The translations under genes were made by a program, and so were the position numbers. A stretch of DNA of 64,000 nucleotides from Collibacillus ludicampi (GTDB taxonomy: Bacteria; Bacillota; Bacilli; Tumebacillales; BOQE01): contig NZ_BOQE01000002.1 in NCBI RefSeq assembly GCF_023705585.1, positions 23,992-87,991 on the forward strand, read 5' to 3'. Within the stretch, counting starts at the first letter, position 1. Every line of letters starts with the position of its first letter. Positions 6,476 through 43,682 of the stretch are shown in pieces. A model generated the notes under the pieces. The model made no database searches and was not told where the DNA came from. It was given only the letters and a program-made list of their open reading frames with translations.

Positions 6476-6487
6476 TATAATAGTATT

Positions 6488-6568
6488 AAGGGCAAACCAG
6501 TAGAAATGCTGGGACGCAAAGCCACGGGTCTACGGGTAAGTAAAGCCTATGACCGCCGGGTTGCCGTT
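6488..6568 (+). promoter_or_regulatory. c-di-GMP-I (GEMM) riboswitch aptamer
   Basis: The consensus is nearly complete: GGGCAAACC, a GAAA tetraloop-type P2 tip, then GGGACGCAAAGCCACGGG, a second arm, and CCGGGTTGCC closing P1. The aptamer binds cyclic di-GMP. A TATAAT box at 6476-6481 places the transcript start at its edge. It precedes a terminator (6656) and the chemoreceptor gene. Confidence 0.92.
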
Positions 6569-12245: not shown

Positions 12246-12482
12246 ATTCCACCTCTTCGGTAACTGGCTGGCATAGTCATTGACCGTAGCCCCTCTAGCT
12301 TTGCGTCCCTGGCTTTCGCCAGGTTTGCCATTATCGGAGGTTAGATTTTAGTAGTGTAAATTTCTTCCCTTATTTTTATACAAAATATGACAAAATACAA
12401 GTCTTAGTTTTTTATGTTACAGGACCAATCCCTCGTAAACAAACGTAAACACATAGTTTTTGTAAAGTGGTGTAACAAAAAT

Positions 12483-22605: not shown

Positions 22606-23985
22606 TTACTGCACATTGACGGTAATCGAGCCGGTAATTCCAAGTTGATCATTAGAGACCGTTACTGTTTGAGTTCCCGTTGTATTCAGTAATACGGGAA
22701 TCTGCGCGACACCATTTGTAAATGTCACAGATGTTACGAAAGACGTATTGGTCGAATCGGTCGTAGATACTTTCATTGTATAGGTTCCATAGATATCTGT
22801 ATCGACAGCCCCATTCTTGAGAACCGTGAGCGTATAAGCATAGGATTGACCATGTAATACGGAACTTGGAGCTGATAATTGCATGCTAATAGGGGTAGCC
22901 GTTAAATTATAGGAACCGGACTGACTGTTTATATAATCAATATAAACTCCGGAACTGCCTGCGGGGATCAGCACGTATGAAACCGTGTTCCCATCTTGTC
23001 TAAACGTTCCATTTCCACCGTTATCACTTAGATAATAAGTTGTTGTTGTATTGACAACAACAGGGTTTCCATTTGCATCAACCGGTTCTACAAGAAGGTG
23101 AACAGGTATGTTAGCAGATACACTTAACGAATTTGTACCTGAGATTTTAGTACCGTTCAGGTAAATCGCTGCCCCCGAAGCAGTCCCGGTTTGTGTTATT
23201 GTTGATGTTGTTGTTGTTATATTCGAGCCGGGTACTACTTCCGTTAGACCCGTTGTCCCGCTCGAAACTGGTGGAACTTCTAACTGATTTTCTATGTTGT
23301 AGAACAGTGCTGCTACTTGCGCGCGGTTTAAGTTGCTTAACGGATCAAAACGATCAGGGCTCACTCCGATCATCACACCTGATTGAATGGCAGTGGCTAC
23401 ATATGCGCGCAAATTTACAGGAATCGAACCAGCATCTTGATAACTGCTTAAAATCGTATTTGCTTGATCGTTGGATACGAGTTGAACACGGTTTTCATTT
23501 TGTAATATTCTTACCAGTGTGACGGCAGCTTCTGCCCGGTTTACTGGACGATCCGGTTGAAAATAATATTGGCCATTTGGATCAGTAAATGCTGTCATAT
23601 AATCCTTTGCAGCTTCAACATACGGGAAAAACCAATCGCTGTTCGAGACATCCTGAAAATCTTGCTGAGTGCCATTTGCTGCTTGCAGATGGAAATACCG
23701 GCTTAAAAGGGTTGCAAACTGCGCACGTGTAATCGTCCCGCCCGGTTGAAAATGATGTTTATCAATACCGCTGATAATTCCTTGGCTCGCTAATTTTGCA
23801 ATGGCTTGTCTCGCCCAACCATAGTTCCCGTCTACATCATCAAAATTAAAAGAATAAGCTTTCATATCATCATTTTCCTTGAAATGCCCTCGATGATGAC
23901 CGTGATCATCGGCAAAAGCCGGTGAACTCAAACCTGCAATCAGTGCCAATGAAGAGAGTGTAGCCGCGATTTTTCTTCCTTTCAT
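22606..23985 (-). CDS. S-layer homology (SLH) domain exported protein (459 aa)
   Basis: SLH triplets anchor proteins to pyruvylated secondary cell-wall polymer. The signal peptide is about residues 1-25 (LSSLALIAGLSSPAFA-DD). Three SLH repeats follow at about 50-105, 110-165 and 175-235. Each has the pattern of Phe/Asp entry, GI-SG, and a late ITRAQFATLL-type helix (VNRAEAAVTLVRIL and LNRAQVAALFYNIE in repeats two and three). The C-terminal half has two beta-rich Ig-like regions (Thr/Ser-rich, TLTVLKNGAVDTDIYGTYTMK). AAAGGAGG precedes the ATG. It sits between two 74-bp direct repeats (22231, 24153), so it may be an inserted cassette. Confidence 0.9.
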   Translation of the reverse strand: MKGRKIAATLSSLALIAGLSSPAFADDHGHHRGHFKENDDMKAYSFNFDDVDGNYGWARQAIAKLASQGIISGIDKHHFQPGGTITRAQFATLLSRYFHLQAANGTQQDFQDVSNSDWFFPYVEAAKDYMTAFTDPNGQYYFQPDRPVNRAEAAVTLVRILQNENRVQLVSNDQANTILSSYQDAGSIPVNLRAYVATAIQSGVMIGVSPDRFDPLSNLNRAQVAALFYNIENQLEVPPVSSGTTGLTEVVPGSNITTTTSTITQTGTASGAAIYLNGTKISGTNSLSVSANIPVHLLVEPVDANGNPVVVNTTTTYYLSDNGGNGTFRQDGNTVSYVLIPAGSSGVYIDYINSQSGSYNLTATPISMQLSAPSSVLHGQSYAYTLTVLKNGAVDTDIYGTYTMKVSTTDSTNTSFVTSVTFTNGVAQIPVLLNTTGTQTVTVSNDQLGITGSITVNVQ

Positions 23986-32566: not shown

Positions 32567-32649
32567 ATTTTTACGCTCCTCACCGCGCCCCCGATCCCGG
32601 AGGGGCGCAAGATTTTTGCATCCCCCCGGGTGGGGTGAGTGAGAAGGTT

Positions 32650-34707: not shown

Positions 34708-35175
34708 TCAAAAAGGTAAATCGTCGTCGTTGATGTCGATGTGACCACCTTCAAATGGGTCATTGTTTCGACGTGAGTAAGGCAATTCGTCGTCATTGAT
34801 GTCGATATGACGATCATCCGCAAACGAACGCCCTTGTCCACTGTTGGTTCCGTTGGATTCTCCTCGATCCAGGAACCGCACAGAATCAGCAACGACTTCC
34901 GCGACGCGAACCCTTTTGCCTTCTCTGTTTTCATAATTGCGTATTTGCAAACGCCCTTCGACGGCGGTCAAACGGCCTTTTTTCAAATATTGTGCGGCTG
35001 TCTCCGCGAGCTTTTGCCAGACCACAATATCAATAAAGTCCGCTTCGTTTTCACCTTGGTTGGTATAAGGACGATTCACAGCCAAGGTAAAACGCGCCAC
35101 CGCCGTTCCTTGAGGCGTATATCGCAATTCGGGATCAGCCGTTAGCCGCCCGATCAGAATGATTCTGTTCAGCAT
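34708..35175 (-). CDS. ssb: Single-stranded DNA-binding protein with two acidic tips (155 aa)
   Basis: The OB fold [20 protein letters not shown] with [20 protein letters not shown] and ADSVRFL is standard SSB. The C-terminal tail carries the partner-binding acidic tip twice: [11 protein letters not shown] (about 123-133) and the true end [11 protein letters not shown]. The first lacks the terminal Phe and is internal. The stop at 34708 overlaps nothing, and the start overlaps the CHC2 gene by 41 bases. Confidence 0.95.
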
Positions 35176-35704
35176 GATGATCCTCCCCTTTGTTGAGCGG
35201 TGCGTTCAGGAAGTGCTTGAGCACGAACCTTTGCATCCGCTGCAATTCTTTGTCATAGGCTTGCTTCTCGCGCCAGATCCAGTCGGCAAGCGCCTTGGCC
35301 CGAGCCGGGTCTTTCTTTTTCAGTTCCTCCCAGTTCGGGACTTTCAGGAAACCAAGCGCTTTGATTTCCTTCGCGCTTAACCGTTCCGCCGGATGGCGAT
35401 AGACTTTTCTCTTGAATGTCGTATGTCCCCGATCTCCACCACGCAACTCTTCCTTTGCGGATTCCTCGCTGATGTTGTGGAGCAAGGCATAGAAGCGAAT
35501 CACACCGCCTTGCGCGTTGCAGCGATAGCAGTTGAATACATCCCGTTGTCCGTGGACTTGAAGATGTTTTTTCGTATCGCCGCAAAAGGGGCAGTTGGCT
35601 TCATATTGATCGGGGCGATTCCTGCGAGGGAACAGTTGAATTCCTGCTTCCCTAGCGATTCGTACAATCGACCAACGGTCATCCTGTCTTGCTCCATGAA
35701 ACAT
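35135..35704 (-). CDS. CHC2 zinc-finger protein, primase N-terminal-like (189 aa)
   Basis: The CHC2 domain has [20 protein letters not shown] followed by [10 protein letters not shown], the zinc site of DnaG-type primases, but there is no Toprim or polymerase domain. The C-terminal half is helical and basic ([20 protein letters not shown]). It may recruit replication proteins or be a short primase partner. GGAGGTGATC precedes the ATG at 35704. Confidence 0.8.
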
Positions 35705-35814
35705 CGCGATCACCTCCGCAGAAGAAATGAAAAAGCGGAACCAAGGCATACTGAGACTCAACATAAATCAAGTCCAGATTCCTTTGTTCCGCTTTGCCGT
35801 GATGAATCGGGCTT

Positions 35815-36795
35815 TTATGCGATCTGCTGGTCATGCTCTTGTACCACCTTGAAATTCAACAGCAACCAATAGTCCCTTCTCGGAATATGTTGTGCAGTCA
35901 CTTCGATCTTTGCACCTTCCGGAAGGCCCAACATATCCAATTGATCGGATAAGGGTTGCGCGGCAATCAAGGTTTTCGCTTGACCAGTCATGTCAAAAAC
36001 ATCCAATTTCGCAAGCAAGCCTTTACCTGTGGGGGATTCATCAAACTGAATGGATTTTATCGTAACAACACCCTCATAGTTTTCGGCACCCACTTTTTGG
36101 GTAGTGGAGTGTTGTTGATCGTTTTTCGGAGGTTCTTCAGCCGATGTCGGCTGTTCTTTTTGTGGAGTGTTTTGAGGAGTGCTTTGTGGCGATGATGAAG
36201 CAGGCATTTCGGGTTGAGACGAAGACTCGGGTTCCGGAACATGTTGTGATTCCAGTCTCCGCTGTTCGACGGTTGCAGCCGCGACTTCTTCATAGGTCGC
36301 GATTCCCGTCCCTAAAAGCCCATAGGCCAGGTTCCCGAGAGCACGACCAACGGCTGATGTCTCCGCGTTCTCGACTGGATTGGTGCTATCGACACCTTTC
36401 CCGCCAAAATTGACGATGGCGTGTGCCGTAGCTGTTCCGTATAGTTCCGATACGACCTTACAAGTAAAGAGCTTGGTATTCGGGTCGTAATATGTCTCAA
36501 TATCCAACCGTTTGCCCTGTTCTTTGTGTTCATCGCGCGCCATCTGAATGCGTCCATCGACGGTGAAGTATGGAAGTTCGATCGGAACAAATATCGCTCC
36601 GTCTCGTGATTGCCATACTCCCAGTCGTTTCGCTTCAGCTGGAAGCACTGCGTCTTTTGCTTCTCCTATCTTCTTGTTTTGCGCTAGGAGAACGATAAAC
36701 TCGTGGTATTGCGAGGGGATCTTCTTAAACGCCTGATCCCGTCTTTTTTGAGCGATTTCCTGCTCTTCTTTCGCTTTTTTTACGATCCAATCCAT
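35815..36795 (-). CDS. Putative ssDNA-annealing or ERF-like recombination protein (326 aa)
   Basis: The conserved NPVENAETSAVGRALGNLAY with GTGIATYEEVAAA is typical of ERF/Sak-like phage single-strand annealing proteins (AETSAxGRALxxxG...IASxEEV). The N-terminal half is basic. Residues about 190-240 are a Pro/Ser/Gln linker. The end (VEVTAQHIP-type beta region) is an extra OB-like part, which is not standard. GGAGGG precedes the ATG at 36795. It is the first gene of the operon and lies downstream of the large RNA. Confidence 0.6.
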   Translation of the reverse strand: MDWIVKKAKEEQEIAQKRRDQAFKKIPSQYHEFIVLLAQNKKIGEAKDAVLPAEAKRLGVWQSRDGAIFVPIELPYFTVDGRIQMARDEHKEQGKRLDIETYYDPNTKLFTCKVVSELYGTATAHAIVNFGGKGVDSTNPVENAETSAVGRALGNLAYGLLGTGIATYEEVAAATVEQRRLESQHVPEPESSSQPEMPASSSPQSTPQNTPQKEQPTSAEEPPKNDQQHSTTQKVGAENYEGVVTIKSIQFDESPTGKGLLAKLDVFDMTGQAKTLIAAQPLSDQLDMLGLPEGAKIEVTAQHIPRRDYWLLLNFKVVQEHDQQIA

Positions 36796-36899
36796 GTTTT
36801 TACCCTCCAGTCTCGGCCCCCTCCTACCTGCGTCGGGGGCCAAAAATTTTTTAGCGCCCCTGCAGATGGGGTAACCGATCCGAAGGCGGATCGTCTATT

Positions 36900-37874
36900 C
36901 GTTTTCCGTCTAGTGTTTTCGCGTAACCACTAGAACTTTTTTGCGATAAGCGTATGGACGCTCATCTCCCTGAAGTGATGGCGATTCCATTGTCTTTCAC
37001 AGTGAATCACGCCGATATGCCCACGGGCTCTATGCAGTAATCCCCTGTTACTCAACAACGTCCCTTTCCACCACACCTCAGTTCGTTACAAGTTTGCTTT
37101 GCCGGGATGCCTGTAGGGTGCTCATTCCTACTCGCAAACTCGCCCCCTCTGTTCTACTCCGCCAATCATCGCCACTTTGAGCAAAAGTGACTATGGCTGA
37201 ACGCCGGGTGCTTCCTCATCGGTCATTGCCGCGCGAATCGGCTCACTTGGGAAGTTGGTGTAAAGTGTTGATTGTGCGTGCCTGTTCGGATCGTTTCGAG
37301 TTCCATACAACCGAAGGTATGTCTGTTTGTGCTAAGATCTCGAATTAGCCGATATGCCCATGGGCTCTAGCATAATCCGGTCGTCACACAGGACGTCCCT
37401 TCAAGAGCAGGTGCCCCATGCTCCTTACAGACACCAGGTGATAGGATGCTCAGCCTATCGGGGTGCCCCTCACAGACGGTCCATTGCTTGGAGCAGAAAC
37501 AAGCAACTACGAAACAGTGAGGTTGTAGGTTGCTCGGCCTACGGCATAGTACACTCACTGGCAGTCCATTACTTGGAGCAGACAAGTAACTATGCAACAG
37601 TGAGGTTGTTTCTTCTCTGGTGGGCTCGCTTCCTCCACCAGATCGATGTCGGCCCCAACGGTTACTTTTCTCAGTCCCTTTTCACCGTTCCGTCCACATC
37701 GAAACACGTTTGCTTGCTGGGATGCGTGCACGTTGCTCATGCGTGCACATGGCAAACGTGCCCCCATGTTTTTGCCCTTCCATCGCTTTTGAGCAAAAAA
37801 CGACTCGGACAAATGGAGTCTTTTCCAAATTTTCACGCCTTGCGAATGGCTCCATTTGGAAAAGATTATCTTAT
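36900..37874 (-). ncRNA. Large tandem structured RNA with complementary hairpin loops
   Basis: No convincing gene; overlapping short ORFs have no ribosome sites. Two homologous copies are visible: 37010-37190 and 37340-37800, each ending with AGCCC-x-TGGGCATATCGGC on the minus strand. Plus-strand stem-loops fall in two types. TGCTC loops: 37113-37131, 37440-37459, 37525-37542 and 37726-37748. GAGCA loops: 37173-37189, 37484-37506, 37569-37589 and 37787-37799. Loops of the two types are complementary over 5 bases. A consensus promoter (37882-37910) starts it on the minus strand. A 5' stem CTTTTCCAAAT/ATTTGGAAAAG opens the RNA. It may end near 36900 or run into the recombination operon. Confidence 0.65.
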
Positions 37875-37881
37875 GAAATAA

Positions 37882-37910
37882 ATTATAAGTATCTAAAAAT
37901 TGATTTTCAA
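37882..37910 (-). promoter_or_regulatory. Consensus sigma-A promoter of the large RNA
   Basis: On the minus strand TTGAAA (37905-37910) and TATAAT (37882-37887) are 17 bases apart. The predicted start is near 37874. Confidence 0.8.
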
Positions 37911-38095
37911 GACGTAGAATCTATAGACATTTATATTTCTAGACGAACAAGAATCTGCCTCCCCTAAAGAGAAAATTACAGTTTCTTAAAGAAAATTACA
38001 CAAAAATGACGCGAAACAATTTCATATTCTATGAAATAATTTCATTAAATGTTTTATTATACTTGTGAAATAAAAATTAAAAGAGGTGATGTGTT

Positions 38096-39103
38096 GTGAA
38101 AAAAACAATGGCTACTTTATCCATGATTTCCGCCCTTTCATTAAGTGCGGTTCCTGCTTTTGCAAAAGGAGGAAACGGAAACATTCAAATTATAGGGAAC
38201 GGTCATGCTCGACAAAACATTCATATTACGAATACAACCAATGTTGTCGATAATACAGTCGTTTTCGGTGATGTAAAAGGACATTGGGCAAAAAAATACA
38301 TAATGGATCTTGTGAAAAAAGGGATACTCTCCGGTAAAAGTAAACAGAAATTTGATCCAGATGCTCAGGTGACACGCGCAGAATTCGCTACAATGGTTAC
38401 GCGGTATTTTCAATTAAAAAATGATTCGACTCAACAAGACTTTGAAGATGTTCCTCCTACTTCTTGGGAGTATAAATATGTAGAAGCCGCTAAAGATTAC
38501 TTTGATGCATATCGTACTTTAGATGGCGGTCTTCTGTTCAAGCCCTTTGAAGGTGATAAGCGCGAAGACGTAGCAGTCACTTTGATAAAAATCTTACTCA
38601 AGCAAAATCCGGATATGCAATTGTTAGATGCCGATACTGCAACACAATTATTACAAGAAAAATTCCCGAAAGATTATACGAAGATTCCACAAGCTCTTCA
38701 ACCTTATGTAGCTACGGCAGTTAAATATGATTTGATGCACGGGTATGGTGATGGTTCTTTTAGACCTGATCGTGTTGTTACACGCGCGGAAGCTGCCACA
38801 TTACTTGATCGCTTGCAAGATAGTACAGTCGTTGTAATGGGAGATCAATCGAATACGGGTGCTACAACTACAACTACTACATCTTCTGGCACGGAAACCA
38901 CTGTTTCTCAACAATCTGCAGGAACTTCTGCAGCGAGTGGGTCTACAACATCAAATACAACAGCTTCCAACCAAAATTCCGTAGGTAGTTCAACTTCTGG
39001 AAGCCAATCAACTCAAACGACAACATCGAGTAACACCAACGGTTCTTCATCTACAGAGACAGTAGCATCAAACGTATATGGCACTACAACAAATAATCAA
39101 TAA
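38096..39103 (+). CDS. SLH-domain exported protein with Ser/Thr tail (335 aa)
   Basis: The signal peptide is about residues 1-22 (MISALSLSAVPAFA). SLH units are DVKGHWAKKYIMDLVKKGIL with VTRAEFATMVTRYF, then a second diverged unit (SWEYKYVEAAKDYF), and a third with GYGDGSFRPDRVVTRAEAATLL. The last 95 residues are low-complexity Ser/Thr/Gln, a possible wall-spanning stalk. The start is GTG with AAGAGGTG upstream. 37911-38095 is AT-rich and probably promoter sequence. Confidence 0.88.
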   Translation: MKKTMATLSMISALSLSAVPAFAKGGNGNIQIIGNGHARQNIHITNTTNVVDNTVVFGDVKGHWAKKYIMDLVKKGILSGKSKQKFDPDAQVTRAEFATMVTRYFQLKNDSTQQDFEDVPPTSWEYKYVEAAKDYFDAYRTLDGGLLFKPFEGDKREDVAVTLIKILLKQNPDMQLLDADTATQLLQEKFPKDYTKIPQALQPYVATAVKYDLMHGYGDGSFRPDRVVTRAEAATLLDRLQDSTVVVMGDQSNTGATTTTTTSSGTETTVSQQSAGTSAASGSTTSNTTASNQNSVGSSTSGSQSTQTTTSSNTNGSSSTETVASNVYGTTTNNQ

Positions 39104-42863: not shown

Positions 42864-43682
42864 TCAGATGTTATCAATGACTCTAACCACTTCGCAATTG
42901 ATTCTTTTCCTTTCTTGTTCGATGGATTGGATGTGTACGACGACTCGTGTTCCAGTGGGAAGGGGACGTGGATAGTAAGCCATTCCTGTTATTCCATCGA
43001 AGATTTTCAAGAATAAACCCCTTCTTTTGTTTGTTCCTGTAACCTGAGCGACATACGGATGCTCAAGTTTTATACGTTCCGTAACCATTTGCCAGGGATC
43101 ACGTTCCAAGTCTTTTTTGGAGACATAGATTTTCCCTGTTTGTTCATCAATGTTTGTGATTTTTACTCGAATTTCTTGGCCAACGCTTAACACTCTGCGT
43201 GGATTTCCTATATACACGTTGGAAATGTCTTCTCGGTTCAGAATCCCCTCGATACCCCCGAGATCCACAACTGCGTGCGTATTCCGAACCTGTTGAACGA
43301 TCCCCCTTAGAACCCGGTTAACCTGGATGTTTTGTTGAGTTTCTTTCGCTAAAACCTCTTTTCCTTTGGTCATCGAGAGGTACAGAACTTCCGCATTCCG
43401 ATCAACTTCTGTGATCAGTACCGGAACGCGACTGCCAAGCATCCGAAGCATCTGATTTGGATTTTCAAGACCGGTTTGTGAGAAGGGAATAAGCCCCTTG
43501 ATCAGTCCGATCCAAACAAGAAACGCTTTTTCATTCTCCATGCTTTCAATACCGCTGATCTCTGCCTGTAAGACTTCTTTCCTACGAAAAACCCCCAGCA
43601 ACAAAGGCCAGGGGTTGGTGTCAAATACATCGATGGTTTTGTATTGGTTCCGTCCAGTTAAAATCATTGCACTTGAGTTCAT
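42864..43682 (-). CDS. S1-domain RNA-binding protein (272 aa)
   Basis: Two or three S1-type OB domains are visible. One is VNRVLRGIVQQVRNTHAVVD with LGGIEGILNREDISN and VGQEIRVKITNIDEQTGKIY (about 120-195), the most complete. A first diverged unit (LQAEISGIESMENEKAFLVW, VPVLITEVDRNAEVLYLS) and a third partial (YVAQVTGTNKRRGLFLKIF) flank it. It may bind mRNA or the large plasmid RNA, an inference worth testing. AAGGAG precedes the ATG. Confidence 0.8.
   Translation of the reverse strand: MNSSAMILTGRNQYKTIDVFDTNPWPLLLGVFRRKEVLQAEISGIESMENEKAFLVWIGLIKGLIPFSQTGLENPNQMLRMLGSRVPVLITEVDRNAEVLYLSMTKGKEVLAKETQQNIQVNRVLRGIVQQVRNTHAVVDLGGIEGILNREDISNVYIGNPRRVLSVGQEIRVKITNIDEQTGKIYVSKKDLERDPWQMVTERIKLEHPYVAQVTGTNKRRGLFLKIFDGITGMAYYPRPLPTGTRVVVHIQSIEQERKRINCEVVRVIDNI

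What the first reader, a model, noticed from the sequence alone, without database searches (positions are those of the whole stretch)
36900..37880. Large tandem RNA with complementary kissing-loop hairpins
The region has no convincing gene, but on the plus strand I can draw at least eight stem-loops: four with TGCTC in the loop and four with GAGCA, exactly complementary. Stems covary: TTGCTTG/CAAGCAA (37484-37506) and TTACTTG/CAAGTAA (37569-37589) share the loop GAGCAGA but differ by one compensated pair. GATAGG/CCTATC and GTAGG/CCTAC frame similar TGCTC loops. Two homologous copies lie head-to-tail, each with one hairpin of each type, and copy A adds two more of each. A TTGAAA-N17-TATAAT promoter reads into it on the minus strand. 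Large ornate phage and plasmid RNAs (GOLLD, ROOL) use loop-loop contacts for higher-order assembly. Whether this is one of those or a new class I cannot say. This is the leading candidate for an undescribed system.
Basis: partly seen in the sequence, partly recalled or inferred. Interest (0 to 1): 0.93.

Follow-up and report, generated by a model that had tools for sequence, protein, structure and literature searches.

The report
Plasmid RNA with repeated matching loops
A stretch of about 1,000 bases on plasmid-like bacterial DNA, with no recognisable protein gene, likely makes a folded RNA whose four repeated parts each carry two predicted hairpins with exactly complementary loops that would hook together, much as in the giant self-assembling RNAs of some plasmids and phages, though it matches no catalogued RNA family.

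Summary
Read on the minus strand (37875 to about 36870) there are eight hairpins in strict alternation, UGCUC then GAGCA, four times: unit A, two 85-nt tandem repeats, unit B. Counting distinct loops, reciprocity is 4; none of 2000 dinucleotide shuffles exceeded 2. Stems differ between copies with compensated pairs while the loop cores stay identical. A TTGAAA-17-TATAAT promoter reads in. Folding is stronger on minus (z -4.4) than plus (-2.9). No ORF there has a credible relative. No Rfam family matches, GOLLD and ROOL included. No sequence homologue was found in the collections searched, so loop pairing could not be tested by covariation. New context: the region precedes a CHC2/SSB DNA-processing operon of plasmid-like DNA, and in Alicyclobacillus and Brevibacillus plasmids the same slot holds other structured RNAs (about 400-750 nt), mostly ending in a terminator, differing in sequence between lineages. 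The window and several Alicyclobacillus plasmids also share a small double-hairpin leader with complementary loops. Best reading: a new family of large plasmid RNA, probably folding or oligomerising through repeated kissing loops and serving plasmid maintenance; pairing, transcription and function are inferred.

The parts
37882..37910 (-). sigma-70-type promoter TTGAAA-17-TATAAT reading into the RNA (predicted start about 37875)
   Evidence: 11 of 12 matches; sequence
37811..37865 (-). 5' domain: 12-bp hairpin UCUUUUCCAAAU/AUUUGGAAAAGA competing with, or joined as an H-type pseudoknot to, AAAUGGAG/CUCCAUUU
   Evidence: inverted repeats I2 and I5; fold; the pseudoknot is my drawing, untested
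37783..37802 (-). unit A, UGCUC-loop hairpin
37702..37767 (-). unit A, stem ACGUUUGC/GCAAACGU holding the GAGCA-loop hairpin 37726-37748 and the conserved side AUCCCRGCAA
37523..37609 (-). middle repeat m1: outer stem CUCACUG/CAGUGAG, UGCUC hairpin 37569-37589, GAGCA hairpin 37525-37542
37438..37526 (-). middle repeat m2: UGCUC hairpin 37484-37506, GAGCA hairpin 37440-37459
37403..37425 (-). stem AGGAGCA/UGCUCUU: the fifth GAGCA and UGCUC paired with each other
37345..37408 (-). 3' end of the A half: AAGGGACGU hairpin and UAGAGCCCAUGGGCAUAUCGGC (contains palindromic CCAUGG)
37172..37190 (-). unit B, UGCUC-loop hairpin
37085..37150 (-). unit B, homologue of the unit A stem, with GAGCA-loop hairpin 37113-37131
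37008..37075 (-). 3' end of the B half: AAGGGACGU hairpin and UAGAGCCCGUGGGCAUAUCGGC
36876..36893 (-). hairpin CGAUCCGCCUUCGGAUCG near the RNA's 3' end; no intrinsic terminator was found on the minus strand at this end
36817..36871 (-). double-hairpin leader CCCC-AUCUGCA-GGGG / CCCC-GACGCAGGUAGGAG-GGGG with complementary loops, just before the ribosome-binding site
   Evidence: also before the first gene in L046, L050, L051, L053/L023 and, by eye and in a CCC form, in L045
35815..36843 (-). first gene of the operon; listed from TTG (342 aa), more likely from ATG at 36795 behind GGAGGG (326 aa); partial relatives on Bacillaceae and Paenibacillaceae plasmids
   Evidence: start codon judged from the sequence
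35135..35764 (-). CHC2 zinc-finger (primase-type) protein, the marker used to find related plasmids

Best explanation
The minus strand from 37875 to about 36870 likely makes a large noncoding RNA of four repeated units, each with a predicted UGCUC-loop hairpin followed by a predicted GAGCA-loop hairpin, and these loops are predicted to pair (kiss) with each other, tying the units together within one RNA or between RNA copies. Shown here: the eight hairpins and their alternation, the internal duplication with compensated stems and unchanged loop cores, the excess folding on the minus strand, the near-consensus promoter, the lack of a recognisable coding frame, and the location before a CHC2/SSB/nuclease/clamp operon on plasmid-like DNA. 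Also shown: related plasmids carry other structured RNA-like regions in the same slot. Inferred: that the RNA is transcribed, that the loops pair, and that it forms an RNA-only assembly as ROOL and GOLLD do. Inferred more weakly: that it serves plasmid maintenance or establishment, by analogy with the megaplasmid-borne lncRNA of Lactobacillus salivarius, whose deletion lowered megaplasmid copy number (PMC5643018).
For: Reciprocal loops beyond shuffles and their strict alternation with 5-7 complementary bases. Stems diverged but loop cores identical in all four units. MFE z -4.4 on minus, -2.9 on plus. Promoter. Four ORFs have no Pfam match at E 0.1 or better except one far below its cut-off at E 0.09, and the 175-aa ORF has no homologue. 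Plasmid-type genes: TubZ, ParB, TraG-type coupling protein, UvrD, Replic_Relax. Same slot occupied in Alicyclobacillus and Brevibacillus plasmids. Of 16 such regions folded, 14 have sense z of -2.3 or lower and 13 are lower in sense than antisense. One of those RNA lineages shows covariation: 5 of 17 pairs changed on both sides, score 0.273 against 0.138 +/- 0.021 in shuffles. An S1-like protein family is encoded upstream of the slot in several plasmids: HHalign probability 99, E 9e-18.
Against: The UGCUC and GAGCA cores never vary, so they give no covariation for or against kissing. Only two copies per alignment exist and no homologue. No minus-strand terminator was found at the 3' end, so the RNA could be a long 5' leader of the operon rather than a separate RNA. 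None of 13 other slot RNAs scanned shows a comparable 4+4 reciprocity (L029 was left empty by an indexing slip). The covariance model of the Alicyclobacillus RNA does not hit the window (best 6.8 bits), so only the position, not the RNA, is shown to be shared. Two of 16 slot RNAs do not fold better than shuffles (L054 z -0.7, L101 z +0.5), and four coding controls gave z -2.03, -2.56, -1.54 and -0.20, so a mild z alone is not proof. The terminator and promoter script had no shuffle control. 15 of 20 further CHC2 loci gave no evidence of such an RNA; 11 of these were not read. The plus strand also has reciprocity 3, since hairpins are nearly symmetric between strands. No transcript data exist here.
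Confidence: 0.45

Rival explanations
1. It is a very long structured 5' leader of the CHC2/SSB operon: the RNA is made only as part of the operon mRNA and controls its expression, together with the double-hairpin leader.
For: No terminator between RNA and first gene. The double hairpin and the ribosome-binding site follow directly. A possible early attenuator lies at 37802-37820: GACUC/GAGUC hairpin then G and six T (sequence).
Against: In 17 of 20 slot sequences scanned a terminator-like hairpin lies at the RNA's 3' end (no shuffle control), so there it is likely a separate transcript. One kilobase with four repeated units is far larger than known leaders (recalled).
Confidence: 0.25
2. The repeated loops are binding sites for a protein, for example the S1-domain protein encoded nearby (42864-43682), and their complementarity is incidental.
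For: S1-like protein family upstream of the slot in Alicyclobacillus and Brevibacillus plasmids and about 5 kb from it in the window. Another slot region (L109) repeats one loop, CUGACGGA, in several hairpins.
Against: Two loop types that are exact reverse complements and alternate four times are hard to get by chance. By Pfam alone only 1 of 10 upstream proteins showed S1, weakly and below its cut-off.
Confidence: 0.15
3. It is an origin or primer region of the plasmid (RNAII-like), its structure serving replication.
For: It lies before CHC2, SSB and clamp genes; lncRNA deletion lowers copy number in another plasmid (PMC5643018).
Against: GC skew changes sign near 38 kb only together with gene direction; I recognised no initiator gene beside it.
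Confidence: 0.1
4. Chance hairpins in decayed sequence, with duplications producing the repeats.
For: No homologue found.
Against: The shuffles, compensated stems with unchanged loop cores, and structured RNA-like regions in the same slot elsewhere.
Confidence: 0.05

Closest known systems
ROOL RNA (including, by my recall, the 520-nt megaplasmid lncRNA of Lactobacillus salivarius)
   Same: Large, structured, noncoding; ROOL assembles through intermolecular kissing loops (PMC12286853 passages); the L. salivarius RNA is megaplasmid-borne.
   Different: No Rfam match; four repeated units with one reciprocal loop pair each; different gene context from the L. salivarius locus.
GOLLD RNA
   Same: Large ornate RNA; kissing loops are among the contacts that hold a 14-mer cage.
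   Different: No Rfam match; no tRNA genes in the window; plasmid-type genes around it.
Alicyclobacillus plasmid RNA described here (model R2)
   Same: Same place before the CHC2 operon, multi-domain; in 11 of 41 genomes of that family.
   Different: Unrelated sequence by blastn and covariance model; built on repeated GGAGUA/GAAGAA internal loops; mostly ends in a terminator.
ColE1-type RNAI/RNAII kissing hairpins (recalled)
   Same: Plasmid RNAs with complementary loops.
   Different: There the loops are on opposite-strand RNAs; here both loop types are on one strand, four times each.

Membership tests
ROOL | match to the Rfam covariance model | tested here: not met
   Searches (gathering, whole window; E up to 10, 36700-38200): no ROOL match; that Rfam holds ROOL, GOLLD and OLE models is stated in PMC12286853
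ROOL | homo-oligomeric cage by kissing loops | not testable with these tools
   needs cryo-EM or native gels; only complementary loops are seen here
GOLLD | match to the Rfam covariance model | tested here: not met
GOLLD | phage context, often beside tRNA genes (recalled) | tested here: not met
   no tRNA in the window; neighbours are mainly plasmid-type genes, with some phage-type replication genes
OLE / HEARO | match to the Rfam covariance models (HEARO's presence in Rfam is recalled) | tested here: not met
Alicyclobacillus plasmid slot RNA (R2 family, this report) | match to model R2 | tested here: not met
   no window match; best 6.8 bits with filters off, while nine members (eight of them the model's own sequences) score 69.9-145
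Alicyclobacillus plasmid slot RNA (R2 family, this report) | position before the CHC2 operon of a TraG-type plasmid, with a promoter | tested here: met
   in the window one more gene stands between RNA and CHC2, and TubZ, MerR and SLH genes between S1 and RNA
large ornate plasmid RNA in the broad sense | own transcript with conserved structure | tested here: inconclusive
   promoter and fold present, transcript untested, no homologue for covariation

The most novel reading that the evidence does not exclude
The window shows a new class of self-assembling plasmid RNA: four tandem plug-and-socket units that close or polymerise the RNA through identical UGCUC-GAGCA kisses. It is one occupant of a fixed slot before the DNA-processing operon of Bacilli conjugative-type plasmids, in which large structured RNAs are required but their sequence is exchanged or rewritten from lineage to lineage.
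Probability: 0.3. Interest if true: 0.88.

Novelty: new variant of a known kind. Interest (0 to 1): 0.7.

Why it matters
Why plasmids and phages keep giant folded RNAs is an open question. Here the assembly rule would be readable in sequence: two five-base loops, four times each. And a fixed genomic slot holding unrelated large RNAs beside SSB, clamp and CHC2 genes would tie such RNAs to plasmid DNA handling, which can be tested directly by deletion and copy-number or transfer assays.

Tried and rejected
Rfam at gathering (whole window) gave two c-di-GMP riboswitches elsewhere; at E 10 around the finding only chance matches, such as rli60 at 27.4 bits against a cut-off of 60. blastn: no match in phages, one 3% match in plasmids. 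blastn in 101 genomes: 13 other genomes gave short matches at E 0.01-0.1, taken as chance. The first gene's protein found no relative in IMG/VR or in 13 other genomes of its order. IMG/VR pattern scans: 4 and 2 stretches, all six inside ORFs. Pattern in 398 phylum genomes with one mismatch: 14 other genomes (the reversed control pattern: 3 genomes); five of the fetched loci were checked and all five lie in ORFs, two fetched ones were not checked; R3 does not match those five or the two IMG/VR loci. Model R3 from copies A and B: of 398 class genomes only the own one plus an AT-rich 24-bit match in G372 that I take for chance; of 44 sources only the own copies, next best E 2.5. Model R1 was built with a structure off by one column and was not used. 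A first pair count on A3 was also mis-registered and was redone. The first reciprocity count was redone with distinct positions. The H-type pseudoknot drawn in m1 (GCAUAG/CUAUGC) is broken in m2, so I do not claim it. GC skew showed no origin signal. The 15 IMG/VR loci and the 19 loci that are not Alicyclobacillus were not examined further.

Full report
WHAT IS THERE. The window lies on an 87,991-base contig (C2) of a 4.09-Mb genome. The finding reads best on the minus strand. A promoter with 11 of 12 consensus bases (37910-37882) points to a start near 37875. The next kilobase folds with z -4.4 on the minus strand and -2.9 on the plus strand (40 shuffles each). Numbered from 37875, TGCTC occurs at 81, 296, 381, 467 and 693, and GAGCA at 138, 341, 425, 453 and 753. 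Positions 453 and 467 pair with each other in one stem. The other four of each lie in hairpin loops and alternate strictly. The loops share 5 to 7 complementary bases: the UGCUC loops of A and B reach 6-7 with any GAGCA loop, those of the middle units 5.

CHANCE. A first script found reciprocity 4 (1 of 1000 shuffles reached 4 and one more 3), but it counted one UGCUC position twice and excluded the copy-A hairpin. Counting distinct positions, reciprocity is 4 with up to two G-U pairs per stem and 3 with one; in 2000 shuffles the best was 2 in both settings (48 and 14 shuffles). Shuffling ignores the internal duplication. As my own arithmetic, given two loop families with one conserved 5-mer each, the chance that they are exact reverse complements is about 1 in 1000, or somewhat more if the register is free.

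INTERNAL COPIES. Copies A and B align with compensated changes at 3 of 18 pairs, and m1 and m2 at 2 of 20. Shuffle controls on two sequences are weak (71 of 500 and 135 of 500 reach them); the slid controls give 0 pairs changed on both sides at every offset. Both halves end in TAGAGCCCRTGGGCATATCGGC, 21 of 22 identical. The stems around the UGCUC and GAGCA loops differ between units while the loop cores do not, which suggests selection on the loops. It does not by itself show that they pair.

NOT CODING. Of four ORFs across the region none has a credible Pfam match (one hit at E 0.09, far below its cut-off), and the longest (175 aa, plus strand) has no homologue at E 0.001 among 15 candidates.

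CONTEXT. Downstream on the same strand follow a protein with partial relatives on 13 plasmid records, a CHC2 zinc-finger protein, SSB, LysM, a PD-(D/E)XK exonuclease, a beta clamp and an antirepressor. The rest of the window holds TubZ, ParB, a TraG-type coupling protein, an S1-domain protein and UvrD, and Replic_Relax and a KAP NTPase. The CHC2 protein finds Alicyclobacillus and Brevibacillus plasmids (6 records) and 15 Alicyclobacillus loci among 34 in genome contigs. Of 21 loci compared, four end at a contig edge just upstream (L048, L049, L052, L055). In the other 17 I take a stretch before the CHC2 operon to be noncoding: I read 13 and judged four by 91-99.6% identity to a read one (L023, L050, L057, L058). 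No gene is annotated there in L021, L022, L023, L027, L028 and L029. ORF listings cover L046, L047, L050, L051, L053 and L022 (sense strand) and L056, L059, L051 (L051 has minus-strand ORFs of 143 and 133 aa there). None was made for L045 and L054. In the two Brevibacillus plasmids two genes lie between the stretch and CHC2.

THE OTHER SLOT RNAS. Sixteen stretches of 327-730 nt were folded (30 shuffles each): z of -2.3 or lower in 14 of 16, sense lower than antisense in 13 of 16; exceptions L054 (-0.7) and L101 (+0.5); four coding controls gave -2.03, -2.56, -1.54 and -0.20. In one search, which had no shuffle control, 17 of 20 sequences show a terminator-like hairpin at the RNA's 3' end; the others are L101 (the fetched stretch ends first), L109 and the window. 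A promoter with at most one mismatch in TTGACA lies near the 5' end in 11 of 20, the window included; L028, L029, L045 and L109 have weaker ones; L050, L051, L053, L101 and L114 have none near by this rule. One family (model R2, eight sequences) has 5 of 17 pairs changed on both sides, covariation score 0.273 against 0.138 +/- 0.021, 0 of 500 shuffles as high (the tool warns that related sequences can exceed shuffles without structure). R2 occurs at 16 places in 11 of 41 genomes of the Alicyclobacillus-holding family (unnamed handles; placed there because L123 equals L022), up to four in one. It is rich in GGAGUA/GAAGAA internal loops, which look to me like sarcin-ricin (bulged-G) motifs; that label is recalled. 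R2 has no significant score at the finding. So position is shared, sequence is not. None of 13 of these RNAs scanned has a comparable 4+4 reciprocity (the L029 entry was empty by an indexing slip). Rfam matched only group II intron pieces in six plasmid loci at E 0.5 and nothing at gathering in eight genome-contig loci.

LIMITS OF THE SLOT. In a class-wide draw, 32 of 398 genomes, the own one included, have a CHC2 match at E 1e-8. I fetched 26 upstream stretches; six repeat earlier loci. Of the other 20, five show such an RNA: L101 and L114 and L109 by reading (L101 despite its z), L107 by 92.6% identity to L109, and L104 by blastn to L100 and an R2 match. Four read ones do not obviously (L108, L110, L113, L122), and 11 were not read. 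A gap before CHC2 in Lysinibacillus pSSII-1 (L026) is AT-rich and did not look like such an RNA to me. The RNA slot is thus not universal.

UPSTREAM PROTEIN. Seven proteins encoded just upstream of the slot (L022, L021, L100, L099, L104, L102, L109) match the S1-domain proteins of the window, L028 and L029 by profile comparison (probability 99, E 9e-18, 251 columns). By Pfam alone only one of ten upstream proteins tested showed S1, at E 0.0037 and below its cut-off. In L028 and L029 one or two genes lie between S1 and the slot; in the window about 5 kb.

A SECOND ELEMENT. Between the RNA and the first gene is a double hairpin, CCCC-loop-GGGG twice, with complementary loops, and in several cases, by eye, an outer stem that includes the ribosome-binding site. 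The window has it at 36817-36871 and again at 32588-32635 before the clamp gene. The scan gives three window hits on two places (one is the opposite-strand reading of the second) against a shuffle mean of 0.07 and maximum of 2 (60 shuffles). Before the first gene it also occurs in L046, L050, L051 and L053/L023 and, by eye and in a CCC form, in L045. Elsewhere it is flagged at L046 15788-15838, L045 1567-1614 and, with four complementary bases, L053 10755-10798. The loops differ in sequence yet stay complementary (GCCGC/GCGGC, GTCGC/GCGAC, CTGTGC/GCACAG). The R2 plasmids did not show it in that scan. This supports the view that the window's leader corresponds to theirs.

MECHANISM. I commit to a promoter-driven RNA whose units are tied by UGCUC-GAGCA kisses, within a molecule or between copies. 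ROOL and GOLLD form RNA-only cages in which kissing loops take part (PMC12286853: passages and the Main section seen), and ARRPOF and OLE form dimers (PMC12641628: passages). For function, the nearest hint is the L. salivarius megaplasmid lncRNA: its deletion lowered megaplasmid copy number and its authors suggest it might help maintain megaplasmids, while saying it cannot be essential, since some strains with megaplasmids lack it (PMC5643018: abstract, section 17 and discussion read). That it is a ROOL RNA is my recall.

IN PRINT. I found no description of this RNA or of the slot in searches (listings seen; papers seen as stated), nor a match in Rfam 15. The library lacks most subscription papers and says it holds no bioRxiv preprints.

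Noticed in passing
window 32588-32635 (-) and 36817-36871 (-); L046 7811-7855 and 15788-15838; L051 7674-7720; L053 7652-7698; L045 1567-1614: Recurrent leader of two C/G-block hairpins with complementary loops that vary in sequence, mostly just before start codons; the middle blocks can also pair (GGGG with CCCC), so it looks like a two-state translational switch.
   Followed up: partly
window 37802-37820 (-): GACUC/GAGUC hairpin followed by G and six T near the RNA's 5' end, overlapping an alternative pairing CAAAUGGAG/CUCCAUUUG: a possible early attenuator.
   Followed up: no
   Followed up: no
L021 5268-5780, L022 5304-5745, L027 3210-3610, L047: Serial GGAGUA/GAAGAA internal loops (bulged-G-like, recalled label) in nested stems of the Alicyclobacillus plasmid RNA.
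   Followed up: partly
window 42864-43682 (-); L021 4275-5054; L029 179-1186; L028 2097-3203: S1-like RNA-binding protein family encoded between the coupling protein gene and the RNA slot in several plasmids.
   Followed up: partly
window 6481-6568 (+) and 12256-12339 (-): Two c-di-GMP-I riboswitches.
   Followed up: no
window 38096-39103 (+) and 22606-23985 (-): Two SLH-domain (S-layer type) proteins on the plasmid-like contig, one divergent from the RNA promoter.
   Followed up: no
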